64,000 nucleotides of DNA. Source: Serendipita indica DSM 11827. Its lineage: Eukaryota > Basidiomycota > Agaricomycetes > Sebacinales > Serendipitaceae. The notes beneath the pieces were generated by a model. The model did not search any database. It worked only from the letters and a program-made list of their open reading frames with translations, and was not told the origin of the DNA. The stretch covers positions 1,488,001 through 1,552,000 of the forward strand of contig CAJVGD010000005.1 of the NCBI GenBank assembly GCA_910890315.1. The letters run 5' to 3'. Numbering within the stretch: position 1 is the stretch's first letter; each line of letters opens with the position of its first letter. Positions 1,014 through 57,957 of the stretch are shown in pieces. Made by a program: the position numbers and the translations under genes.

Positions 1014-3586
1014 ATGCTCTCTTCTTTGCTCTGGATCCCCCTTGTAGCTCTACTCACCCTTCACAGCGTCTCCGCTGCTCTCGTCAATGCGACGATTGAT
1101 GACCAGACATATTCAATCATTACATACTCCCCAAGCCGACAGTGGAATCATCAACCACTACAGGGATGGGAAAACGACTTTTACAACCATTCTCGTAGCT
1201 TTACTTACTCTAGAGGCGCCACCGCGACGTTTGTCTTTACTGGTACGTTCTCCAACTCCTCGTCCTCGATGGTTGACCCATGAAACTCGCTCAAAGGTTC
1301 CGCTATATGGGCCCAAGGACCCTTTGCCCCCGACCAAGCCCAGCGGCGCATTTCCCTCGACGGCGTCGACCAAGGTGTCTACAACGCCCTCGCACCAGAA
1401 AGGAGTCCCTCGAGACCATTTTGGAACAGAACCGGTCTCGTCTATACGACCCACACGCTCGTAATCACTCACGACGACCCGGGTGCAAACGCCATCTTGG
1501 CATTGGATGCGTTCATGTGAGTCTTTCCACCTTCATCGTTCTCACACTTTCTGAACCCACGCCTCAGTGTCCAGTACGACGATGCACAGGATCCGTTCCC
1601 GTATACTACCACCACCGTCACATCGTATGCTCCAGAGGTTACCGTGACCACCAATTCTGCAGGTCAAGTCGTCTCAACTATTATTAACGGCGGAGGACCA
1701 AATCAGGGAGGGACTATCAATGGAAACCCCGTTAATGACGGGCTCACGAGTCCGCGCAAGCCATACAGTGCGGTGATCATTGGCATCGTCGTCCCAGTCG
1801 TCTTTCTCTTGGTGCTTTGCTGCGTCGGGCTCTGTCTGTACCGCAAACGAAGAGCACGCACGCGGGAGCGACGTCGCCAATCGTTTCGCGAGAAAATGTT
1901 TCGCCGAATCGGGAGACAATCCATCGGACGCGATGCAACACCTCTTTCGCCGGCAGCTTCAGGTTCAGGGTCAAGGGGGATGCGCGAGCGGCGCATGTCG
2001 GGCTTCACGTACGCGTCTACGCATTACTCGACGGCAGAGGAGTACCATGCGCCTTCTCCACCGCCCTCGGGAAGTGGAGGCCATTTTACACCGACGTCAC
2101 CGACCCCGTTTGCCGTCTCGTTTGGACGGGAGAGTCAAGACTCTGTTAGAGCAGGCACAAATGGTATGCCTTATCGAAGTGAAACCGTTCCCGCTCCGAA
2201 CGACGAGCGTCAGGGCACGGCGCAACAAGCTCCGATTGCTTTCCCACCTAACAGCACACCAAGAGATCCGCCGGTAAACGAAACTGGTGGGAATACTCGA
2301 TCTGCGGAGAGAGAGAGACTTGTTTCCACATACGATCCGACGTTCAGCCCTCCGGCAGAGTGGGATTCGACACCTACAGCAGCTCGCCTTGGTACTGCGC
2401 CTGCCAATGCTGCAAGGAGTGGAGCTCGGCAGACAGATCCTCACACGCCCACAAGAGAGAACCATGCGGGTGTTGATAGGCGAAACTCGACGTCGACGGC
2501 AACCACCCCTTCGGCATATGTCACGGCAGCGAGCCACCAACGTCGACCATCAACAGTCTTTTCAGATTCCGAATCGAGTGCTTCTCACCAGAACCCACAA
2601 CGCCGACCATTGTCGCCACTCTCGCGCACACGTCAGCGGGGCTTCTCCGCCACTGGCACTCCCGCATCCTCGTCGCGGCCCGGCTCGATGCTTCGACGAT
2701 TCTCACAAGCACTGGGAATCTCTTTCTCACGATCTGGCTCGCCAGATGTAGAGGCGAACCGTAATAACCTCAACATGCAAGGACTCGGGAGAGGAGCCGG
2801 CACTGCGCCAGTCGAGGAACAGGATCCTGGTTATTTCCGTGGAATGAATCATTTCAATCTCGGGATCCCACTCAACTATCGGCCCTCAGCGAGCGCAGCT
2901 TCACCTACAGACGGCACACGCATCTCGCGCCATTCGCAGAATCTTCGAAGCCTGGCTATAGACGAAGGCTCGACCGGGCTGAGATCAATGTCACGCACAA
3001 CAAGTGGAAGAATGGACGATTTGGCATTCTCATCGTACACCCAACCCGTCCGCGAGCGCGTCTTGAGCACCGTCGAATCGTCTGCACAAGATCAAGACGC
3101 CCACTCCAACCCAGGAAAAACTGAAGAAGACGAAGAGATGACAGAAAAGGAAAAGATTATCGAAGCATTTGACGGCTCGACGATCGAAGGCAGTATGCGC
3201 GCATGGAGCGTCGGGCATGGCACGATGGCCAGCCAGGGCACCATCAACGGCCCACTAGACGGTGCGGATGTGGATGGCAATGAGGCCGCATCAAGATTGG
3301 GCCGTTCGGGCTCTCAGCCCTCACGGCGGTCACGGCGGTCAATCAGTCACGAGAGAGATGACCATTCGGTACGTTTTGAGTCGATTTGATTTTTTCCCCC
3401 TGCTTTCATTTACCCGTTCCCTGTACTCGCAAGAGTTTCATTCCCTGGCCATATATCATATCCCCGTCTTACCCTCATCCCTTATTCTTTTGTGGGTGTG
3501 CCTATGTGGCTGACACGTAATGACAGGTAATTCCGCCTCCCTCGTACTCAGTGTACATCCCACCCGACACAAAAGGGCAGCCCTAG
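1014..3586 (+). CDS. Single-pass membrane protein with extracellular beta-rich domain and long disordered tail
   Basis: Four exons (1014-1242, 1297-1516, 1568-3368, 3527-3586) give 769 residues. Residues 1-22 form a signal peptide (LLWIPLVALLTLHSVSAA). The ectodomain of about 190 residues contains FVFTGSAIWAQGP and the run LVITHDD, a pattern seen in fungal putative carbohydrate-binding beta-sandwich membrane proteins. One membrane helix follows (AVIIGIVVPVVFLLVLCCVG), then a basic stop-transfer stretch (RKRRARTRERRR). The remaining roughly 500 residues are Ser/Pro/Thr-rich and look disordered, ending in an RS-rich stretch and a 19-residue last exon with PPPSY. The family is widespread in agaricomycetes but uncharacterised. 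A surface sensor whose tail recruits a WW-domain ubiquitin ligase is inference. It is a tandem duplicate of the gene cut by the window start. Confidence 0.85.
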
Positions 3587-37886: not shown

Positions 37887-37977
37887 AGGTCCCGGCGGGA
37901 CTCGAACCCACAACCCTCACATCAACAAAACGCGCATGGTTTAGAAGTGTGATATGCTACCATTGCACCACGAGACC
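37887..37977 (-). tRNA. tRNA-Arg(UCU) with a 19-nt intron
   Basis: Read on the minus strand, the acceptor stem GGTCTCG pairs with CGGGACC (one G-T pair), the D stem is GTGC/GCAT, and the T arm GTGGG-TTCGAGT-CCCGC is intact. The anticodon stem TCACA/TGTGA encloses loop CTTCTAA with anticodon TCT at 37945-37943. A 19-nt intron (37941-37923) follows position 37, the canonical place for eukaryotic tRNA introns. No CCA is encoded, as usual in eukaryotes. It decodes AGA. Confidence 0.93.
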
Positions 37978-38499: not shown

Positions 38500-40825
38500 A
38501 TGGTCCCCGCGACGTTGGCTCTCCTCGCCCCGCTCGTTTATTCTACATTCACTAATGCCCTTCCTTTCGACTCGAAACACACTGATCATGTCAGTAGACA
38601 GACCGGAGGTTCAAACTGGAACGCTTTGGCTTGCTATACGGACAATACCCTCGCCCGCACGCTCACTGGAGCCCAACTTGCCTCCGACTCCATGACCACA
38701 GCCATGTGCCAGGACTTCTGCTACTCTAATGGCTTCAGGTATGCTGGCACTGAATGGAGCAGAGAATGCTGTACGTTTCTGATAGTGGGCCCAACTTGGT
38801 CGAGCTGAACGTGCAATTCTGTAGATTGTGACAGTGAATTCCGCAACAATGGAGCCCCAGCCGATAGTGGATGCGACATGAAATGCTCAGGTTCACCTCA
38901 AGAGATTTGCGGTGGTGGTGTCCGGCTCTCTGTTTACGAGAACTCTGGCGACCTCGCCCCGCCAGAGCCAACGTATCCCGGCTGGACCTCGCAGGGCTGC
39001 TACACCGACTCTGTCGCCAACCGTGCTCTTCCTACCCAAGTATACGTCGATGGCGATATGACTATTGCGAAATGCACGGCAAAGTGCTTCAGCCTGGGAT
39101 ATCCTCTCGCTGGCGTCGAGTTCGCGCACGAGTGTTTTTGCGCGGATTCTGTTGGCTCTTCTGGAGGTCCCGTGACCACGGGTTGTGATATGAAGTGTAC
39201 CGGAAACCCTAGCGAGACATGCGGAGGTGCCGATCGCTTGAACGTCTTCAAGTATGCTGGTGCATCTCCTCTTCCATCGACCGGAGACTGGGTTCTTGAC
39301 AGTGCTACCGGCTGCTACACGTGTGTACCAATGCTATTCGTCCTCTTGACACTGACAAGACACAGTGATGCCGTCACCAATCGTGCACTAGGTCTTCGTG
39401 TGTACGTCAATGGTCCAATGACCGTACCCAAATGCACTGCAAAGTGTTTCTCCTTGAACTATGGCTACGCAGGTCTTGAGTTCGCCGATGAGTGCTATTG
39501 CTCCCACTCGATTGGCTCGTCTGGCGTGCAGGCTACGGATGGATGCACAATGGTGAGTGTTTCAGCCTGGATATATAAAGCCATTGCTGAGTTTTCAGCC
39601 ATGCTCCGGAGATATGTCTACAATCTGTGGTGGACCGGATAGGATCACCATTTACAAGTATCAGGGCAACGCTCTCACAACCCAACCTACCGTCCTCGAG
39701 TCGTACAGCAACTTTGTTAGCCAAGGATGCTATGTCGACTCTGTTCAGGCCCGTCTCATGACCCCAATGGACGTCGTCGGGCAAATGACCGTGGAGAAGT
39801 GCATCGACGCTTGTTCTGCGGCTGAATACGATGTGGCCGCTGTGGAATTTGGCTCCGAGTGCTATTGCTCTGTCGGTCTCCCAGCGGAAAGCTTCAAGGC
39901 TACCGATAACTGCAACATGCCGTGTGCTGGAGCCGCTGATTATCTGTGTGGGGGCGCAAACCGTTTGAATGTTTATCAGTATCAGCCACCGACGACTGGT
40001 ACTAGCACAAGCAGCCAGATTGAAACCAGCACGTCGACCTCGACCTCGAGTACATCGACACCGACCTCGAGTACATCGACTTCGACCTCGAGCACATCGA
40101 CTTCGACCTCGGCTACCGCTTCCTGGTCTTGGGAGTACAAATCCTGCCACAAATTAGAGCAAGTAGCATGCTTTCCTTTAATTTTTGTTTCTGATGTGTT
40201 GCAGTATCATGAACTTGCCGGGATGGATGACCCAGAGATTTGTGGTGACTGACTTTCGGAATACTGTCGAGGGGTGCACAAATATGTGCCAAGGTTTTTC
40301 ATATCGTACGGCAATGCTCTCAGGAGCGGTAAGCACAGATATCTCGACCCTTCATTCTCTCACATTTTCACGACAGGACTGCTGTGAGAGCAGGTTGATT
40401 GACTTAGTAGCAATTCTGATCTTTGCTAGTCTGCATCCCGAACGCCCTTGATCTTGCCTCGGATTACACATGCACGACGGTCAGTGACCTCTCTGATGTT
40501 TCCTGACCAAGTACAAACTGTCCCCCTAGCCGTGCCCTGGGAATACTGGGCAGATATGCGGCTTTGATAATCCGCGTGCATCAAACAACTACGCTTGGGC
40601 GGTGCGTGCTTTATACTACAGCAATTGAACCGTCATCTCACGACACATTTAGCTCTCTGTCTACACCGCCAGTATCACCAATGTCGCCACGACTGCTTCT
40701 TCAACCACTCCAACCACGACTCCGTGCATGAACAAGGTAAGAGTTTGACCAGCTATTGTCCACCAACATTGATCGCAGCTTTTTTTTCCCAGCGTGCTAG
40801 CATGGATTTCAACTGCGCCACTTAG
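38500..40825 (+). CDS. Secreted WSC-domain protein
   Basis: A signal peptide (MVPATLALLAPLVYSTFTNA) is followed by four clear WSC domains, each with the Cys pattern C-Y-T/V-D ... C...C...G...F...E-C-Y/F-C ... C...C-x-G. Examples are ACYTDNTLARTL, GCYTDSVANRAL, YAGLEFADECYCSHSIG and GCYVDSVQARLM. A Ser/Thr-rich linker encoded by about 21-nt tandem repeats (40027-40110) comes next. Beyond it, short exons can be joined to a fifth WSC-like domain (MNLPGWMTQRF, GCTNMCQGFSYR, DCFCIPNALDLASDYTC, PCPGNTGQICGFDN) ending at 40825. The splice join just before the fifth domain (40140-40205) is not solved: the obvious acceptor changes the frame. WSC domains bind cell-wall glucans. No membrane anchor is visible at the C-terminus. 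Confidence 0.8.
40027..40110 (+). repeat. Tandem repeat encoding a Ser/Thr linker
   Basis: Several imperfect copies of a roughly 21-nt unit (core tcgacctcgagtacatcgac) encode STSTSSTST between WSC domains, a likely O-glycosylated spacer. Such minisatellites can change copy number between strains. Confidence 0.7.
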
Positions 40826-52808: not shown

Positions 52809-55800
52809 ATGGATACGGCAACGAGTCCTCAAGGGTCATCGTCGTCGACAGGAAGATCATCACGCAAGAGGGCCCAAGTATATACCCCGGCCGGCATCAC
52901 TCTCGACACCGTGGCAAATGTGGCCGAGGCATCCGATATACTTGCTCCTCTCAAAGCAGCCTGTCGAGCAACCAAATCAGTCCTCGATGTCATGCAAGTA
53001 AAGTCGGCGAGACTGGCGTACCTCGTCTAAGGAAGACCACAGGGTATCGACGACAACCAGGAAGACTTTGTCGACCTAACACGGCGTCTAGACGAGTACA
53101 TATCGTCTATTGAAGATCAAGTCAACTCGTTTGAACGGTATCCTCCAGCGGATAGAGCCGTCGACGAAGCGCTTAGCCGGCCACTCATTCGTTACGTCGA
53201 GTATGTAGAATATCACTTCTGCTGCAGCAGCGAGCTGATATACATAGGCTTCTTGAAGATTTTCATCACAAGGTCGTAAATCATAGGCACAAGCGACAGC
53301 GCAGCGGTCTCAATGTTCTAGTTGCGATGAGCAAGATTAAACTGGATGCAGGAGAAATCCGTAAATTCAATCGAGATATCGAGGACAGACATAGGCAGTT
53401 TATGGTACGAGTCCCACTAGTCTTATTCACAAGTTGATCTTAGATGCAGAATGCGTTGGGTCTTTTCACTGCATTGCGTGTTCAAGCCACCGAACGCAAT
53501 GTTCAAGCCATTGAACGTAATTCCAAGGTTATCCTGACAGACGGTAAGCTTAACTTTGTCCATTGAAAGTTTGCTAACTATTACAAGTCGAGACTGCTGC
53601 CATACTGCAGCTACCAATGGTAGCATTCGTCGCGTCCTCAGTGCACACCCCCTGTTTGCAAGGAACACGTCGGACTGTTCTTGACAAAATCTGGCGATGG
53701 GCTGAGGATGATGTGTCGGAGAAACAAATATTCTGGCTATGCGACATAGCTGGATCCGGTAAATCCTCAGTGGCAATGTCCGCAGCGGCGTCGTGGCGAG
53801 CCGAGGGAACTTTGGGGGCCCAGTTCTTCTTCTCGATGGCCAGCACCGAAGCATCAAACATAGAAAAGGTCTGCTCAACCATAGCTAAGGAAATCGCCCA
53901 CCATATACCCGAGCTAGCTCCACACATCGCCGAGGCCGTGAAGCGAAATCCGGTGGTCATGCGAAGTCCGCTTGGCGAGCAGTTTCGCACACTCATCATC
54001 GGTCCACTCAGTCATTCAGACAAGCGAGTAATCATTGTCATCGATGCAATCGACGAATGCAGATCTGGATCACAGCGAAGAGAACTTGTCGAAACCATTG
54101 CTATGGGCGTTCGAGGGAGCAAAAACCTCAAGATCTTCATGACGAGTCGACCAGACCCCGTCATCGAAGCTGTTCTCAAAGGGGTCTCTATTAAAGAAAA
54201 GTTGGAAGACCGCCTGCACGATATCAATCACCCAGATAACACCAATGACATTGAGGTCTATGTAGATCAGTCTCTGCACCTAGTTCTACCCAAGGATAAG
54301 AGGCAACGACTGGTCAAAAAAGCCAACAGCCTGTTCATCTGGGCGAGCACCGCATGCCGAATGCTCACTAGCGAAACCAGTTTGAGTTCGCCCGAGGACA
54401 TATATGATCTCCTTATATCCACGGACCAACCCGGAGTCATAGATGACGTATATGGTCTCGTCTTCGAAAGGACCGACCCACAGTACTACGCAGTGATGTG
54501 CGCAATGCTCGCTCTGCTGGTTGCTGCGTTTGAACCACTCACCGTCGACGATTTGGACGACCTACTGAAGCATGCTAGAGTACGGGGAAGTGCTAAGGCG
54601 TTAGTCCAGAATCTGGGAAGCGTACTCAGTGTGGATCCAGGTACACATCTGATCCAATTTCGTCACCCTACCCTGGTCGAGTACCTTCGACGCTGCTCTA
54701 TTGCACCAACCCCCGATAGACGTAATAGACTGTATCTCAACGTCGCTGATGCGCACGGTCAAGCTGCATCATGGTGTCTCAAACGCTTCAAGTCGCCAAC
54801 TGGAGGTCTCAAGTTCAACATATGTCAAATCGAATCTTCTTTCCTCCTCAACAGACAGATCCCTGATCTCGACGCCAGAGTTTCAAAGTTCATCCCTAGA
54901 AGGCTTCGTTATGCCAGCTCCCATTGGTCATTTCACCTGGCGGAAACTGATGACAGATGGCGACGTGCTCTCAAAAGCGAAATCGTATACGTTACCAAAA
55001 GTCCCCATGTGCTATATTGGGTGGAGATTCTGAGCCTTACTGGAGGAGTACCGCGAGCAATAGCCGGTCTTCGAGCCGTCACACGTCACATAAAAGTGCG
55101 TGGTCTCTACAGATATGTTCTAATTTTTGACATAATGGAAAGGCTGAGGAGGGGTTTCAGACCAGATTAACAGAGATCCGACGGTTTCTAATGGCATTTT
55201 CGGTGGCAATCCAGGACAGTACCCCGCACATCTACATCTCGGCCCTTCCGTTTACTCCTACAAAGTCAATGCTGCGTAGCGAGAGTCTCCCACTGTACGC
55301 GAATACGCTGACTGTGACTCAAGGACTTGAGGAAATGTATCCCAGTCTTCCCAGAACGCTTCGAGGTCATCAGAGACAGATAAATGCTGTCAGATTCTCA
55401 CCAGATGGCTCGCGAATCGCATCTGGCTCTGACGACAAGACGGTTCGACTGTGGGACGCGGACACTGGTCAGCCATTGGGGGAGCCACTTCAAGGTCACA
55501 AAGACACGGTCCAGGCCGTCGGATTCTCGCCAGATGGCTCACGAATCGTCTCTGGCTCTTCCGACATGACAATTCGGTTATGGGATGCGGACACTGGTCA
55601 GCCACTAGGAGAGCCGCTTCGAGGTCACAAATTCTCGGTCTTGGCCGTCGGATTCTCTGCAGATGGCTCACGAATCATCTCTGGCTCCTCCGACATGACA
55701 GTTCGATTGTGGGATGCGGACACTGGTCAACTACTGGGAGAGCCACTTCGAGGTCACAAATCCTCGGTCTTTGCCTTCGGAGTCTCCCCAGACGGCTCAA

Positions 55801-57344
55801 GAATCGTCTCTGGCTCCTCCGGCAAGATAATTCGACTGTGGGATGTGGACACTGGTCAGTCACTGGGAGAGCCACTTCAAGGTCACGAATCCGACGTCTT
55901 GGCCGTCGGGCTCTCTCCAGATGGCTCAAGGATCATCTCTGGCTCCTTCGACAAGACAGTTCGACTGTGGGACGCGGACACTGGTCAGCCATTGGGAGAG
56001 CCACTTCGAGGTCACAAATACTCGGTCTGGGCAGTCGGATTCTCACCAGACGGCTCACGAATCGTCTCCGGCTCTGGCGACGAGACGATTCGACTGTGGG
56101 ATGCAGACACTGGTCAGCCACTGGGAGAGCCACTTCGAGGTCACGAAGACTCGGTACGGGCCGTCGGATTCTCTTCAGACGGCTCAAGAATTGTCTCTGG
56201 CTCCTCCGACAAGACAGTTCGACTGTGGGACGCGGACACTGGTCGGCCATTAGGAGAGCCACTTCAAGGTCACGAATCCGACGTCTTGGCCGTCGGATTC
56301 TCTCCAGACGGTTCGAGAATCGTTTCTGGCTCTTACGATAAGACAGTTCAACTGTGGAACGCGGACAATGGTAGGCCACTGAGAGAGCCACTTCAAGGCC
56401 ACGAATCCGACGTCTTGGCCGTCGGATTCTCTCCAGACGGCTCACGGATCGTCTCTGGTTCTGGTGATAAGACGGTTCGACTGTGGGACGCGGACACTGG
56501 TCAGACAATGGGAGAGCCGCTTCGAGGTCACGAAGACGCGGTCTGGGCAGTCGGATTCTCCCCAGACGGCTCAAGAATCGTCTCTGGCTCCTCCGACAAG
56601 ACAGTTCGACTGTGGGACGCGGATACTGGTCGGCCACTGGAGAGCCACTTCAAGGTCACGAATCTGATGTCTTGGCCGTCGGATTCTCTCCAGACGGTTC
56701 GAGAATCGTTTCTGGCTCCTCCGACTGGACAGTTCGACTGTGGAACGCGGACACGGGTCGGCTACTGGGAGAGCCACTTCGAGGTCACGAATCCTCGGTC
56801 TGGGTCATCGGATTCTCCCCAGACGGCTCACGAATCGTCTCTGGCTCTGGCGACAAGACGATTCGATTGTGGGATGCGGACACTGGTCAGCCACTGGGAG
56901 AGCCGCTTCGAGGACACAAGCTCTCGGTCCGGGCCGTCGGATTCTCCCCAGACGGCTCAATAATCATCTCTGGCTCCTCCGACATGACGATTCAACTGTG
57001 GGATGTTGACACTGGTCGTCCACTGGGAGAGCCACTTCAAGGTCATAAATCCGACGTCTTGGCCGTCGGATTTTTTCCAGACGGTTCACGAATCGTCTCT
57101 GGCTCCTCCGACAAGACGATTCGACTGTGGGATATTGATGCCGGTAAGTCTGTTTCAGGCTTGTTGGTTATTCTGTGACGCAGATTTACAACTTTAATTA
57201 GGCACAAGCGCGAATAATGGTCAGCAGGATCTCAGTGAGGCTGCACATTCAAGCATTCCCGAAGATATAGAGGGTACTCCTTTAGGACTACATGTACCTG
57301 GGTTCACGCATTTCTCGCTTTCGAATGATGGTTGGGTCAAATAA
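52809..57344 (+). pseudogene. NACHT-WD40 NLR protein, disrupted near its 3' end
   Basis: Five exons before the long WD40 exon start at 52809 (MDTATSPQGSSSS). The N-terminal 230 residues are helical (LAPLKAACRATKSVL; FVDLTRRLDEYIS), a candidate HeLo/MLKL-like or adaptor domain. NACHT motifs follow: Walker A CDIAGSGKSS and Walker B VIIVIDAIDEC. A helical winged region ends near 55120; an intron then leads to [15 protein letters not shown] and 14 WD40 repeats from 55353. In repeat 10 (about 56640) one G is missing relative to the other repeats, shifting frame; the following four repeats are open in another frame. A last exon after an intron ends at a TAA at 57342, while 56 further open codons (LLFWVPPENRHGL) match the usual tail of this family. 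Such proteins act in allorecognition and immunity-like cell death in fungi. Whether this copy functions is doubtful; a sequence error is also possible. Confidence 0.85.
55353..57142 (+). repeat. Fourteen WD40 repeats of 43 residues (129 bp)
   Basis: Fourteen units with consensus [20 protein letters not shown] then [20 protein letters not shown] lie head to tail. Fourteen units equal two seven-bladed propellers. The copies are very similar in both DNA and protein. Changes cluster at the residues after GH (KDT, KFS, KSS, ESD, KYS, EDS, EDA, ESS, KLS), the residue after the following V (Q, L, F, W, R) and the residue before D in SGSxD (S, F, G, Y). A base is missing in the tenth repeat. Confidence 0.93.
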
Positions 57345-57957
57345 TTCGGTAAACTTCTCTTCTGGGTGCCTCCAGAAAACCGGCATGGACTCCAAACCCC
57401 ACGTCTTCTTCTCACCATGCCAACGGCGAGTTCGTTTCGCGCGACCAAGCTTGATTTCACCCATTTTCAATGTGGTCTTTCTTGGACAAGCGTACGAAAC
57501 AGTGCTAGCTAGTGAGTCGTGGCGTTTAATACATTATGTACTGTCCTGTTTCAATATTAAACATTCATTTACATTCGTCCTCGAAAGCACTCTCTTCTCC
57601 TAGGTAAACTCAGGCTAAACTTTCCAAACGGCGTAAGAGGTAGTACAAAACGTTTTAGATTCCAAAGTACAAGGACGTGGCTCCCGAAACAAAGAGGCAT
57701 TGTCCATCCTGGATATATCATTATAGCTCGGCCTAGAGAAGACGGAAAATAGTCCAAATAGCCCGTTCAAAGTAGGGGGGATAGATAGCGTGATAAAACG
57801 CAGTGGCGCAAAACGAAAGAGGTGCGTGAAGCGAAGACGTAGCGTTGGCGTTGGCATTGCATTTGCGGAAGAAACCGGGCGTTAGTTGCGTTTGCGGAGA
57901 ACAAGGAGAGATAATAAAACGTTGAGGTGTGCGTGTCGAAAAGGGTGGAGGTGTTAG
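57345..57957. other. NLR tail remnant and second copy of the flanking repeat
   Basis: 57345-57512 is open in the NLR frame beyond the TAA and encodes SGKLLFWVPPENRHGL-like tail sequence, ending at a natural TAG. The second flanking repeat follows at 57651-57797. No other gene. Confidence 0.6.
57651..57797. repeat. Downstream copy of a diverged repeat flanking the NLR gene
   Basis: Same orientation as the copy at 52539-52640, with the same order of short matching blocks (ctcccgaaac, cattgt, ggcctagagaag, gatagatagcgtgat) but about 40 bp longer through insertions. Confidence 0.6.

What the first reader, a model, noticed from the sequence alone, without database searches (positions are those of the whole stretch)
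55353..57142. Fourteen near-identical WD40 repeats with variation focused at a few surface positions
The 129-bp units are so alike that shared mutation by recombination (concerted evolution) is likely, yet a handful of codons differ freely: the three after GH, the one after the next V, and the one before D in SGSxD. Fungal HNWD/HET-type NLRs are known to have repeats that shuffle and diversify at such positions to create new recognition specificities. Fourteen units make two full propellers. This suggests an active or recently active recognition locus.
Basis: partly seen in the sequence, partly recalled or inferred. Interest (0 to 1): 0.75.

Follow-up and report, generated by a model that had tools for sequence, protein, structure and literature searches.

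The report
Fungal immune-receptor gene with broken frame
This is the repeat-built sensor end of an ordinary kind of fungal immune-type receptor gene, varying at the sites expected to touch a target, but its reading frame is broken as assembled, so it may be an inactive allele or carry an assembly error.

Summary
The repeats are real: 14 tandem WD40 units at 55359-57145 (+), 129 bp each, except unit 10, which is 128 bp, so the frame breaks there. 'Near-identical' is overstated: mean pairwise identity is 81.5% (DNA) and 76.6% (protein). The focus of variation is real: codons 9, 6, 7, 25, 27, 39 and 5 are the most variable. At the four codons reported for Podospora het-d/het-e (7, 9, 25, 27), omega is about 4 (p about 0.02), against 0.3 elsewhere. 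The array ends a NACHT NTPase gene starting at 52809, a fungal NLR, but not an HNWD gene: no HET domain was found. Within unit positions 3-32 the same six positions lead in 101 WD40 arrays from 75 of 87 bacterial and viral-collection loci, so the pattern marks repetitive WD40 domains generally, not fungal allorecognition. Evidence for unit shuffling is weak (a 3-unit periodicity). 'Active locus' is not supported: as assembled the protein is cut after ten units. A one-base assembly error seems about as likely as a real lesion. New member of a known kind.

The parts
52809..53543 (+). Exons 1-4 of the gene model (52809-52997, 53043-53200, 53248-53404, 53450-53543): region upstream of the NACHT domain, no known domain
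   Evidence: Open when spliced. Splice sites chosen by hand: automatic enumeration that required YAG acceptors found no model; the last of these introns ends in AAG. No Pfam family above cut-off. No transcript.
53588..55095 (+). Exon 5: NACHT / NPHP3_N-type STAND NTPase and linker
   Evidence: Pfam NPHP3_N 9.2e-25, NACHT 3.5e-08
55096..55142 (+). Predicted intron between NACHT exon and WD40 exon (GTGCGT donor; several acceptors from 55142 to 55175 keep the frame)
   Evidence: Enumeration of frame-keeping introns
55359..56519 (+). WD40 units 1-9, 129 bp each, in frame with the NACHT exon after splicing
56520..56647 (+). WD40 unit 10, 128 bp: reading frame breaks after its 40th codon
   Evidence: the short spot is at a small run of G
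56648..57145 (+). WD40 units 11-14 (the last with 37 codons), read in a different frame from units 1-10, without stops
56961..56963 (+). Stop codon that ends the reading frame of units 1-10 after about 107 out-of-frame residues
   Evidence: ORF 55191-56963
57144..57201 (+). Predicted intron (GTAAGT...TTAG, 58 nt) after unit 14; it overlaps the last 2 bases of the unit-14 range
57202..57509 (+). C-terminal tail with a degenerate blade-like pattern, interrupted by a stop at 57342-57344
   Evidence: codon-usage test of the part after the stop inconclusive; that part matches no Pfam family

Best explanation
A fungal NLR (STAND) gene: unannotated N-terminal region, NACHT NTPase switch, and a C-terminal array of 14 repetitive WD40 units that fold into beta-propellers as the sensor. 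By analogy with Podospora het-d/het-e, binding of a ligand to the loops formed by codons 5-7/9 and 25/27 would release the NACHT domain, drive oligomerisation and trigger the N-terminal region, probably cell death. Shown here: domain order, unit structure, the variable codons lying mostly in the loops before strand a and between strands b and c of the model, and their higher nonsynonymous rate. Inferred: ligand binding, switching, cell death. In the allele as assembled the frame breaks in unit 10, so the predicted product has ten units plus a nonsense tail. This is either a real inactive (or truncated) allele or a one-base assembly error; I rate the two about equal (a judgement, not a result).
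For: NACHT/NPHP3_N domain; 14 units; gene model open from 52809 through 702 residues and joinable in frame to the WD40 exon. Omega at codons 7, 9, 25, 27 is 4.27 (p=0.016) at kappa 5, the best-fitting of five values tried, rest 0.33, classes differ p=8e-9. Third codon positions at seven variable codons (5, 6, 7, 9, 25, 27, 39) are no more diverse (0.22) than elsewhere (0.24), while first and second positions are 4-6 times more diverse. AF2 model of units 1-10: pLDDT 82, strands at unit positions 8-13, 19-24 and about 29-33. Closest solved relative: 2ymu, a highly repetitive propeller. 7 of 10 N-terminal parts tested from relatives carry a STAND- or AAA-type NTPase before the array. Fungal NLR repeat statistics: PMC4986451 (section 13 read). 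Precedent for a false one-base deletion in such repeats: PMC12222747 (passages).
Against: Omega above 1 is only marginal on the ML tree at kappa 2 (p=0.066), and no single codon reaches 0.05 there; for the seven-codon independent set omega is 1.78, p=0.14 at kappa 2 and 2.25, p=0.039 at kappa 5. No fungal paralogue or strain was available. The first P-loop residue is D where G is usual (DIAGSGKS; consensus recalled), so NTP binding is not assured. The N-terminal region matches nothing known.
Confidence: 0.82

Rival explanations
1. An active allorecognition locus, working like het-d/het-e, with units shuffled by recombination; the frame break is only an assembly error.
For: Variable codons as in het-d/het-e (PMC1805685 passages); omega about 4 at the independent set; 3-unit periodicity p=0.003, 0.033 corrected, and TRF score higher at 387 than at 129, resembling the 2-4 unit deletions and the duplications seen in Podospora mutants (PMC2873952 passages), in which the mutations in the WD domain all kept the frame; a one-base deletion in a small homopolymer was judged a misassembly in one Podospora strain (PMC12222747 passages).
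Against: Frame broken as given; no HET domain; silent divergence between units 0.32 and adjacent units not closer than others; silent-site conversion test p=0.11.
Confidence: 0.3
2. A true pseudogene or null allele: inactivated by the frame break in unit 10 and perhaps by the stop in the tail, with too little time for stops to build up in units 11-14.
For: Frame break; TAA at 57342-57344 inside a blade-like tail; near unit 10 no donor of 5/6 or better and a single 4/6 donor, at 56500, that could splice round it; unusual P-loop residue. Read-supported stop codons in a repeat are known from one Podospora strain (PMC12222747 passages).
Against: Units 11-14 keep a clean frame, with 3-5 core deviations each against 1-6 in units 1-10; codon usage after the TAA is inconclusive and one possible intron (57294-57375) could bypass the TAA.
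Confidence: 0.4
3. A repetitive WD40 scaffold whose variable sites reflect relaxed constraint on loops, with no recognition role.
For: Nearly the same positions are the most variable in bacterial and viral-collection arrays, so variability there may follow from the fold; the omega test on the ML tree is marginal at kappa 2.
Against: Relaxed constraint gives omega near 1; here 3.0-4.9 for codons 7, 9, 25, 27 across kappa 2-7, with third positions no more diverse than elsewhere; the array is attached to a NACHT NTPase.
Confidence: 0.18

Closest known systems
Podospora anserina HNWD genes het-d, het-e, het-r (PMC1805685, PMC2873952, PMC12222747; passages, and section 7 of the first)
   Same: NACHT followed by a tandem array of similar WD40 units; overlapping variable codons (7, 9, 25, 27 in the 2007 numbering; 10, 11, 12, 14, 30, 32, 39 in the 2025 numbering, which I map to 5, 6, 7, 9, 25, 27, 34 here)
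   Different: No HET domain found; 43-residue rather than 42-residue units; lower unit identity (76.6% aa, 81.5% nt, against 80-100%); frame broken; no strain or specificity data
Fungal NLRs with NACHT-WD40 and internally conserved repeats (PMC4986451; passages and section 13)
   Same: Architecture, 42-43 residue units, counts up to 14 common; WD40 is the prevailing repeat in basidiomycete NLRs
   Different: Mean pairwise aa identity here is below their 85% cut-off (85.0% only if seven variable codons are left out)
Highly-repetitive WD40 proteins, including 2ymu (PMC5587647, passages and section 11; PDB)
   Same: Internal identity above 0.7; diverse at interaction hotspots; 2ymu is the top hit by sequence and by Foldseek E-value
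   Different: No NTPase or fungal context tested for 2ymu; Foldseek TM-scores of the ten-unit model to it are low (0.42/0.36)

Membership tests
Fungal NLR / STAND (NACHT-WD40) | NACHT-type NTPase domain | tested here: met
   NPHP3_N 9.2e-25, NACHT 3.5e-08, both above curated cut-off
Fungal NLR / STAND (NACHT-WD40) | C-terminal superstructure-forming repeats | tested here: met
   14 WD40 units in tandem
Fungal NLR / STAND (NACHT-WD40) | N-terminal effector domain | tested here: inconclusive
   First 217 residues: no family above cut-off at E up to 1; best PDB match E=0.08, a short stretch
Fungal NLR / STAND (NACHT-WD40) | Unbroken coding sequence | tested here: not met
   Frame breaks in unit 10; may be an assembly error. 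This bears on function of the allele, not on family membership
HNWD (het-d/het-e/het-r) | N-terminal HET domain | tested here: not met
   No HET match at E up to 1 in the first 217 residues. Basidiomycete NLRs are said to lack HET (PMC9815663 passages), but the phylum of this window was not established
HNWD (het-d/het-e/het-r) | WD40 units over 80% to 100% identical within a gene | tested here: inconclusive
   81.5% nt, 76.6% aa mean pairwise
HNWD (het-d/het-e/het-r) | Diversifying selection at codons 7, 9, 25, 27 | tested here: met
   As a set: omega 3.0-5.6 over kappa 2-10, p 0.066-0.005, 0.016 at the best kappa. No single codon reaches 0.05 on the ML tree. Not specific to HNWD,
HNWD (het-d/het-e/het-r) | Repeat-number polymorphism and incompatibility phenotype | not testable with these tools
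   No own genome held and no other strain at hand
[quoted passage not shown]
   0.766 mean pairwise aa, measured differently from PMC5587647

The most novel reading that the evidence does not exclude
The frame break is real and the array is kept as a store of variant units: units beyond the break stay free of stops because they still exchange with intact arrays elsewhere in the genome, so that a silent NLR locus feeds sensor diversity to active ones, as suggested by the intact WD40 repeats of the Podospora nwd pseudogenes (PMC1805685, passages and section 7).
Probability: 0.07. Interest if true: 0.6.

Novelty: new member of a known kind. Interest (0 to 1): 0.3.

Why it matters
It extends the pattern of selected contact codons known from one ascomycete family to a fungal NLR without a detectable HET domain. 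The control with bacterial and viral-collection arrays shows that the pattern of variable positions is shared by repetitive WD40 domains widely, so it must not be read as proof of allorecognition. It also shows that such arrays in assemblies need read-level checks before any claim about activity.

Tried and rejected
FEL-type selection p-values were rejected: the optimiser started at log-rate zero and left the synonymous rate stuck near 1; replace them. A first control on the fetched loci (10 arrays) used a motif that fixed most positions, which favours the expected result; it was replaced by one that fixes W, a constant 42 or 43 spacing, at least five units, at least 35% identity and H at position 4 in 60% of units.

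RIP-type mutation was considered: the array is not depleted of CA relative to TA (CA/TA 7.35 against 1.78 for the window). Of 127 changes from the unit consensus outside eight variable codons, 69 are C>T or G>A, and 28 of these 69 lie in CpG; no clear hypermutation.

Splicing round the frame break: in 55359-57300 only two donors reach 5/6 of GTAAGT (55855 and 57144), and in 56380-56800 only one has 4/6, at 56500; not excluded, unlikely. NACHT or WD40 pieces elsewhere in the window: none at E up to 0.01. The Sawyer-type test on all polymorphic sites (0 of 400 shuffles reach the observed sum) was set aside because several changes in one codon inflate it. Codon-usage test of the tail after the TAA: score 0.078 per codon; 16% of 154 stop-free wrong-frame pieces score as high and 14% of 64 coding pieces as low, so a second lesion is not established. 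The organism was not identified; any closer name than 'fungus' (agaricomycete-like) rests on recall. Foldseek did not settle the number of propellers in the ten-unit model. Papers were seen as passages or single sections as named; others only as search listings.
Full report
What is there. The window holds 14 tandem WD40 units on the + strand, 55359-57145. Starts are 129 bp apart in 12 of 13 steps; from unit 10 to unit 11 the step is 128 bp. The last unit has 37 codons, then a predicted intron with a perfect donor (57144). Unit 10 therefore breaks the frame: the ORF of units 1-10 runs on out of frame to a stop at 56963, and units 11-14 belong to another ORF. The short spot lies at a small run of G.

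How alike the units are. Mean pairwise identity is 81.5% at DNA and 76.6% at protein level; without seven variable codons protein identity is 85.0%. The mean proportion of silent differences is 0.32, dS 0.42 by Nei-Gojobori. This is far above an ordinary WD40 protein (rarely over 10-20% between units, PMC1805685 section 7), but lower than in het-d/het-e. So the units are related by duplication or exchange, but are not freshly homogenised.

Where they differ. By amino-acid entropy over all 43 codons the order is 9, 6, 7, 25, 27, 39, 5; by nonsynonymous differences it is 7, 6, 9, 25, 27, 38, 5, 39. PMC1805685 (passages) names 7, 9, 25 and 27 as strongly selected, with 8 and 26 under purifying selection; 8 and 26 are the conserved V and D here too, so the numbering coincides. 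PMC12222747 (passages) uses 10, 11, 12, 14, 30, 32, 39, which I map to 5, 6, 7, 9, 25, 27, 34. On a codon ML tree with a model I wrote, omega at 7, 9, 25, 27 is 3.03 (p=0.066) at kappa 2 and 4.27 (p=0.016) at kappa 5, the best-fitting of five values; all other codons give 0.29-0.34, and the two classes differ with p below 1e-7 at every kappa tried. For the seven-codon independent set omega is 1.78 (p=0.14) at kappa 2 and 2.25 (p=0.039) at kappa 5. No single codon reaches 0.05 on the ML tree. First and second codon positions at codons 5, 6, 7, 9, 25, 27, 39 have diversity 0.48 and 0.47, third positions 0.22; elsewhere 0.12, 0.07 and 0.24. Earlier p-values were wrong because the optimiser stuck. 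Recombination between units is not modelled; a star tree and one tree with shuffled tips give smaller p (7e-4 and 2.5e-4 at kappa 2).

Control from elsewhere. A protein scan with units 1-9 brought 7 viral-collection loci and 80 genome-contig loci, all with bacterial titles (80 is the limit, at least 578 stretches matched). They were chosen for likeness to this array, so they are not a random sample. Cutting them into units by W spacing, with light filters, gave 101 arrays (814 units) from 75 of the 87 loci; 12 loci gave none. Over positions 3-32, their six positions of highest mean entropy are 7, 25, 9, 6, 27, 5; over the same stretch the window's six are 9, 6, 7, 25, 27, 5. On average 4.73 of the top six per array fall in this set, against 1.2 by chance; by identity class the mean runs from 4.18 (35-55% identity, where position 5 drops to ninth) to 5.33 (75% or more). 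The entropy profiles of the window and of arrays of 65% identity or more correlate moderately (Spearman 0.48, p=0.008). Hence the focus of variation is what repetitive WD40 domains generally show; PMC5587647 (section 11 read) says the like for interaction hotspots. Of 48 ORFs with arrays of 65% identity or more, I examined the N-terminal parts of the first 10 in the list with at least 250 residues there: 7 hold a STAND- or AAA-type NTPase (3 NACHT, 3 nSTAND1, 1 AAA_35) and 2 a TIR domain, one of them together with nSTAND1; L001 and L011 show no NTPase, and for L006 only 25 of 45 families, all shown ones WD40-like, were listed. Six of these ten come from the viral collection.

The gene. Upstream, short introns join five exons from 52809 into 702 residues without a stop. 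I chose these splice sites by hand, after enumeration with YAG acceptors gave no model; the last intron ends in AAG. Pfam finds NPHP3_N/NACHT and nothing above cut-off in the first 217 residues. Several frame-keeping introns lead into the WD40 exon. The neighbour 49466-51808 matches PLU-1 and C5HC2 zinc finger, and another gene has WSC domains, which with the introns points to fungal nuclear DNA (inference); no own genome is held. The tail after unit 14 looks like a degenerate blade cut by a TAA at 57342-57344, but codon usage beyond it is inconclusive and one intron could bypass the stop.

Shuffling. Identity peaks at a distance of three units (p=0.003; 0.033 when the best of seven lags is allowed for), and neighbours are not more alike than others (p=0.18); the best three-unit match is between units 7-9 and 10-12 (89.2%). 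Tests for conversion tracts are not significant on 11 silent codon columns (p=0.11) and borderline on 27 non-hypervariable columns (p=0.096 by sum of squares, 0.047 by longest run). A 3-unit duplication is plausible; continuing concerted evolution is not shown.

Structure. The AF2 model of units 1-10 has mean pLDDT 82 and pTM 0.76, with strands at unit positions 8-13, 19-24 and about 29-33; codons 5-7 precede the first strand, 9 lies near its start, 25 and 27 lie between the second and third. That both loops face the same side of the propeller is recalled. The best solved match is 2ymu, a highly repetitive propeller, with low TM-scores. WD counts in fungal NLRs drop sharply above 14 (PMC4986451 section 13), so two propellers are plausible for an unbroken allele, but the number of blades was not established here.

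Verdict. PMC12222747 reports both a one-base deletion in a small homopolymer judged to be a misassembly in one strain and read-supported stop codons in a repeat in another (passages), and warns that short-read assemblies get such arrays wrong (passages); which holds here cannot be told from the window. In Podospora mutants the mutations in the WD domain all kept the frame (PMC2873952 passages), which leans slightly towards an assembly error.

Noticed in passing
37887-37977 (-): tRNA gene with an insert at the anticodon loop; ARAGORN calls it Phe (aaa), but the loop CTTCTAA read by eye suggests Arg (TCT) with an intron.
   Followed up: partly
65-168 and 3273-3376: A 104-bp direct repeat, 86.5% identical; the second copy is near the end of the ORF 1521-3389, so the window start may hold the end of a related gene copy.
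   Followed up: partly
53588-55095: P-loop of the NACHT domain reads DIAGSGKS, with D where the consensus (recalled) has G.
   Followed up: no
38809-40252: WSC-domain gene with a short 21-bp tandem repeat (40034-40111).
   Followed up: no
L009 and L013: Loci titled Arthrobacter and Mycobacterium with an nSTAND1 NTPase and WD40 arrays 71% and 67% alike internally; L013 also has a TIR domain.
   Followed up: partly
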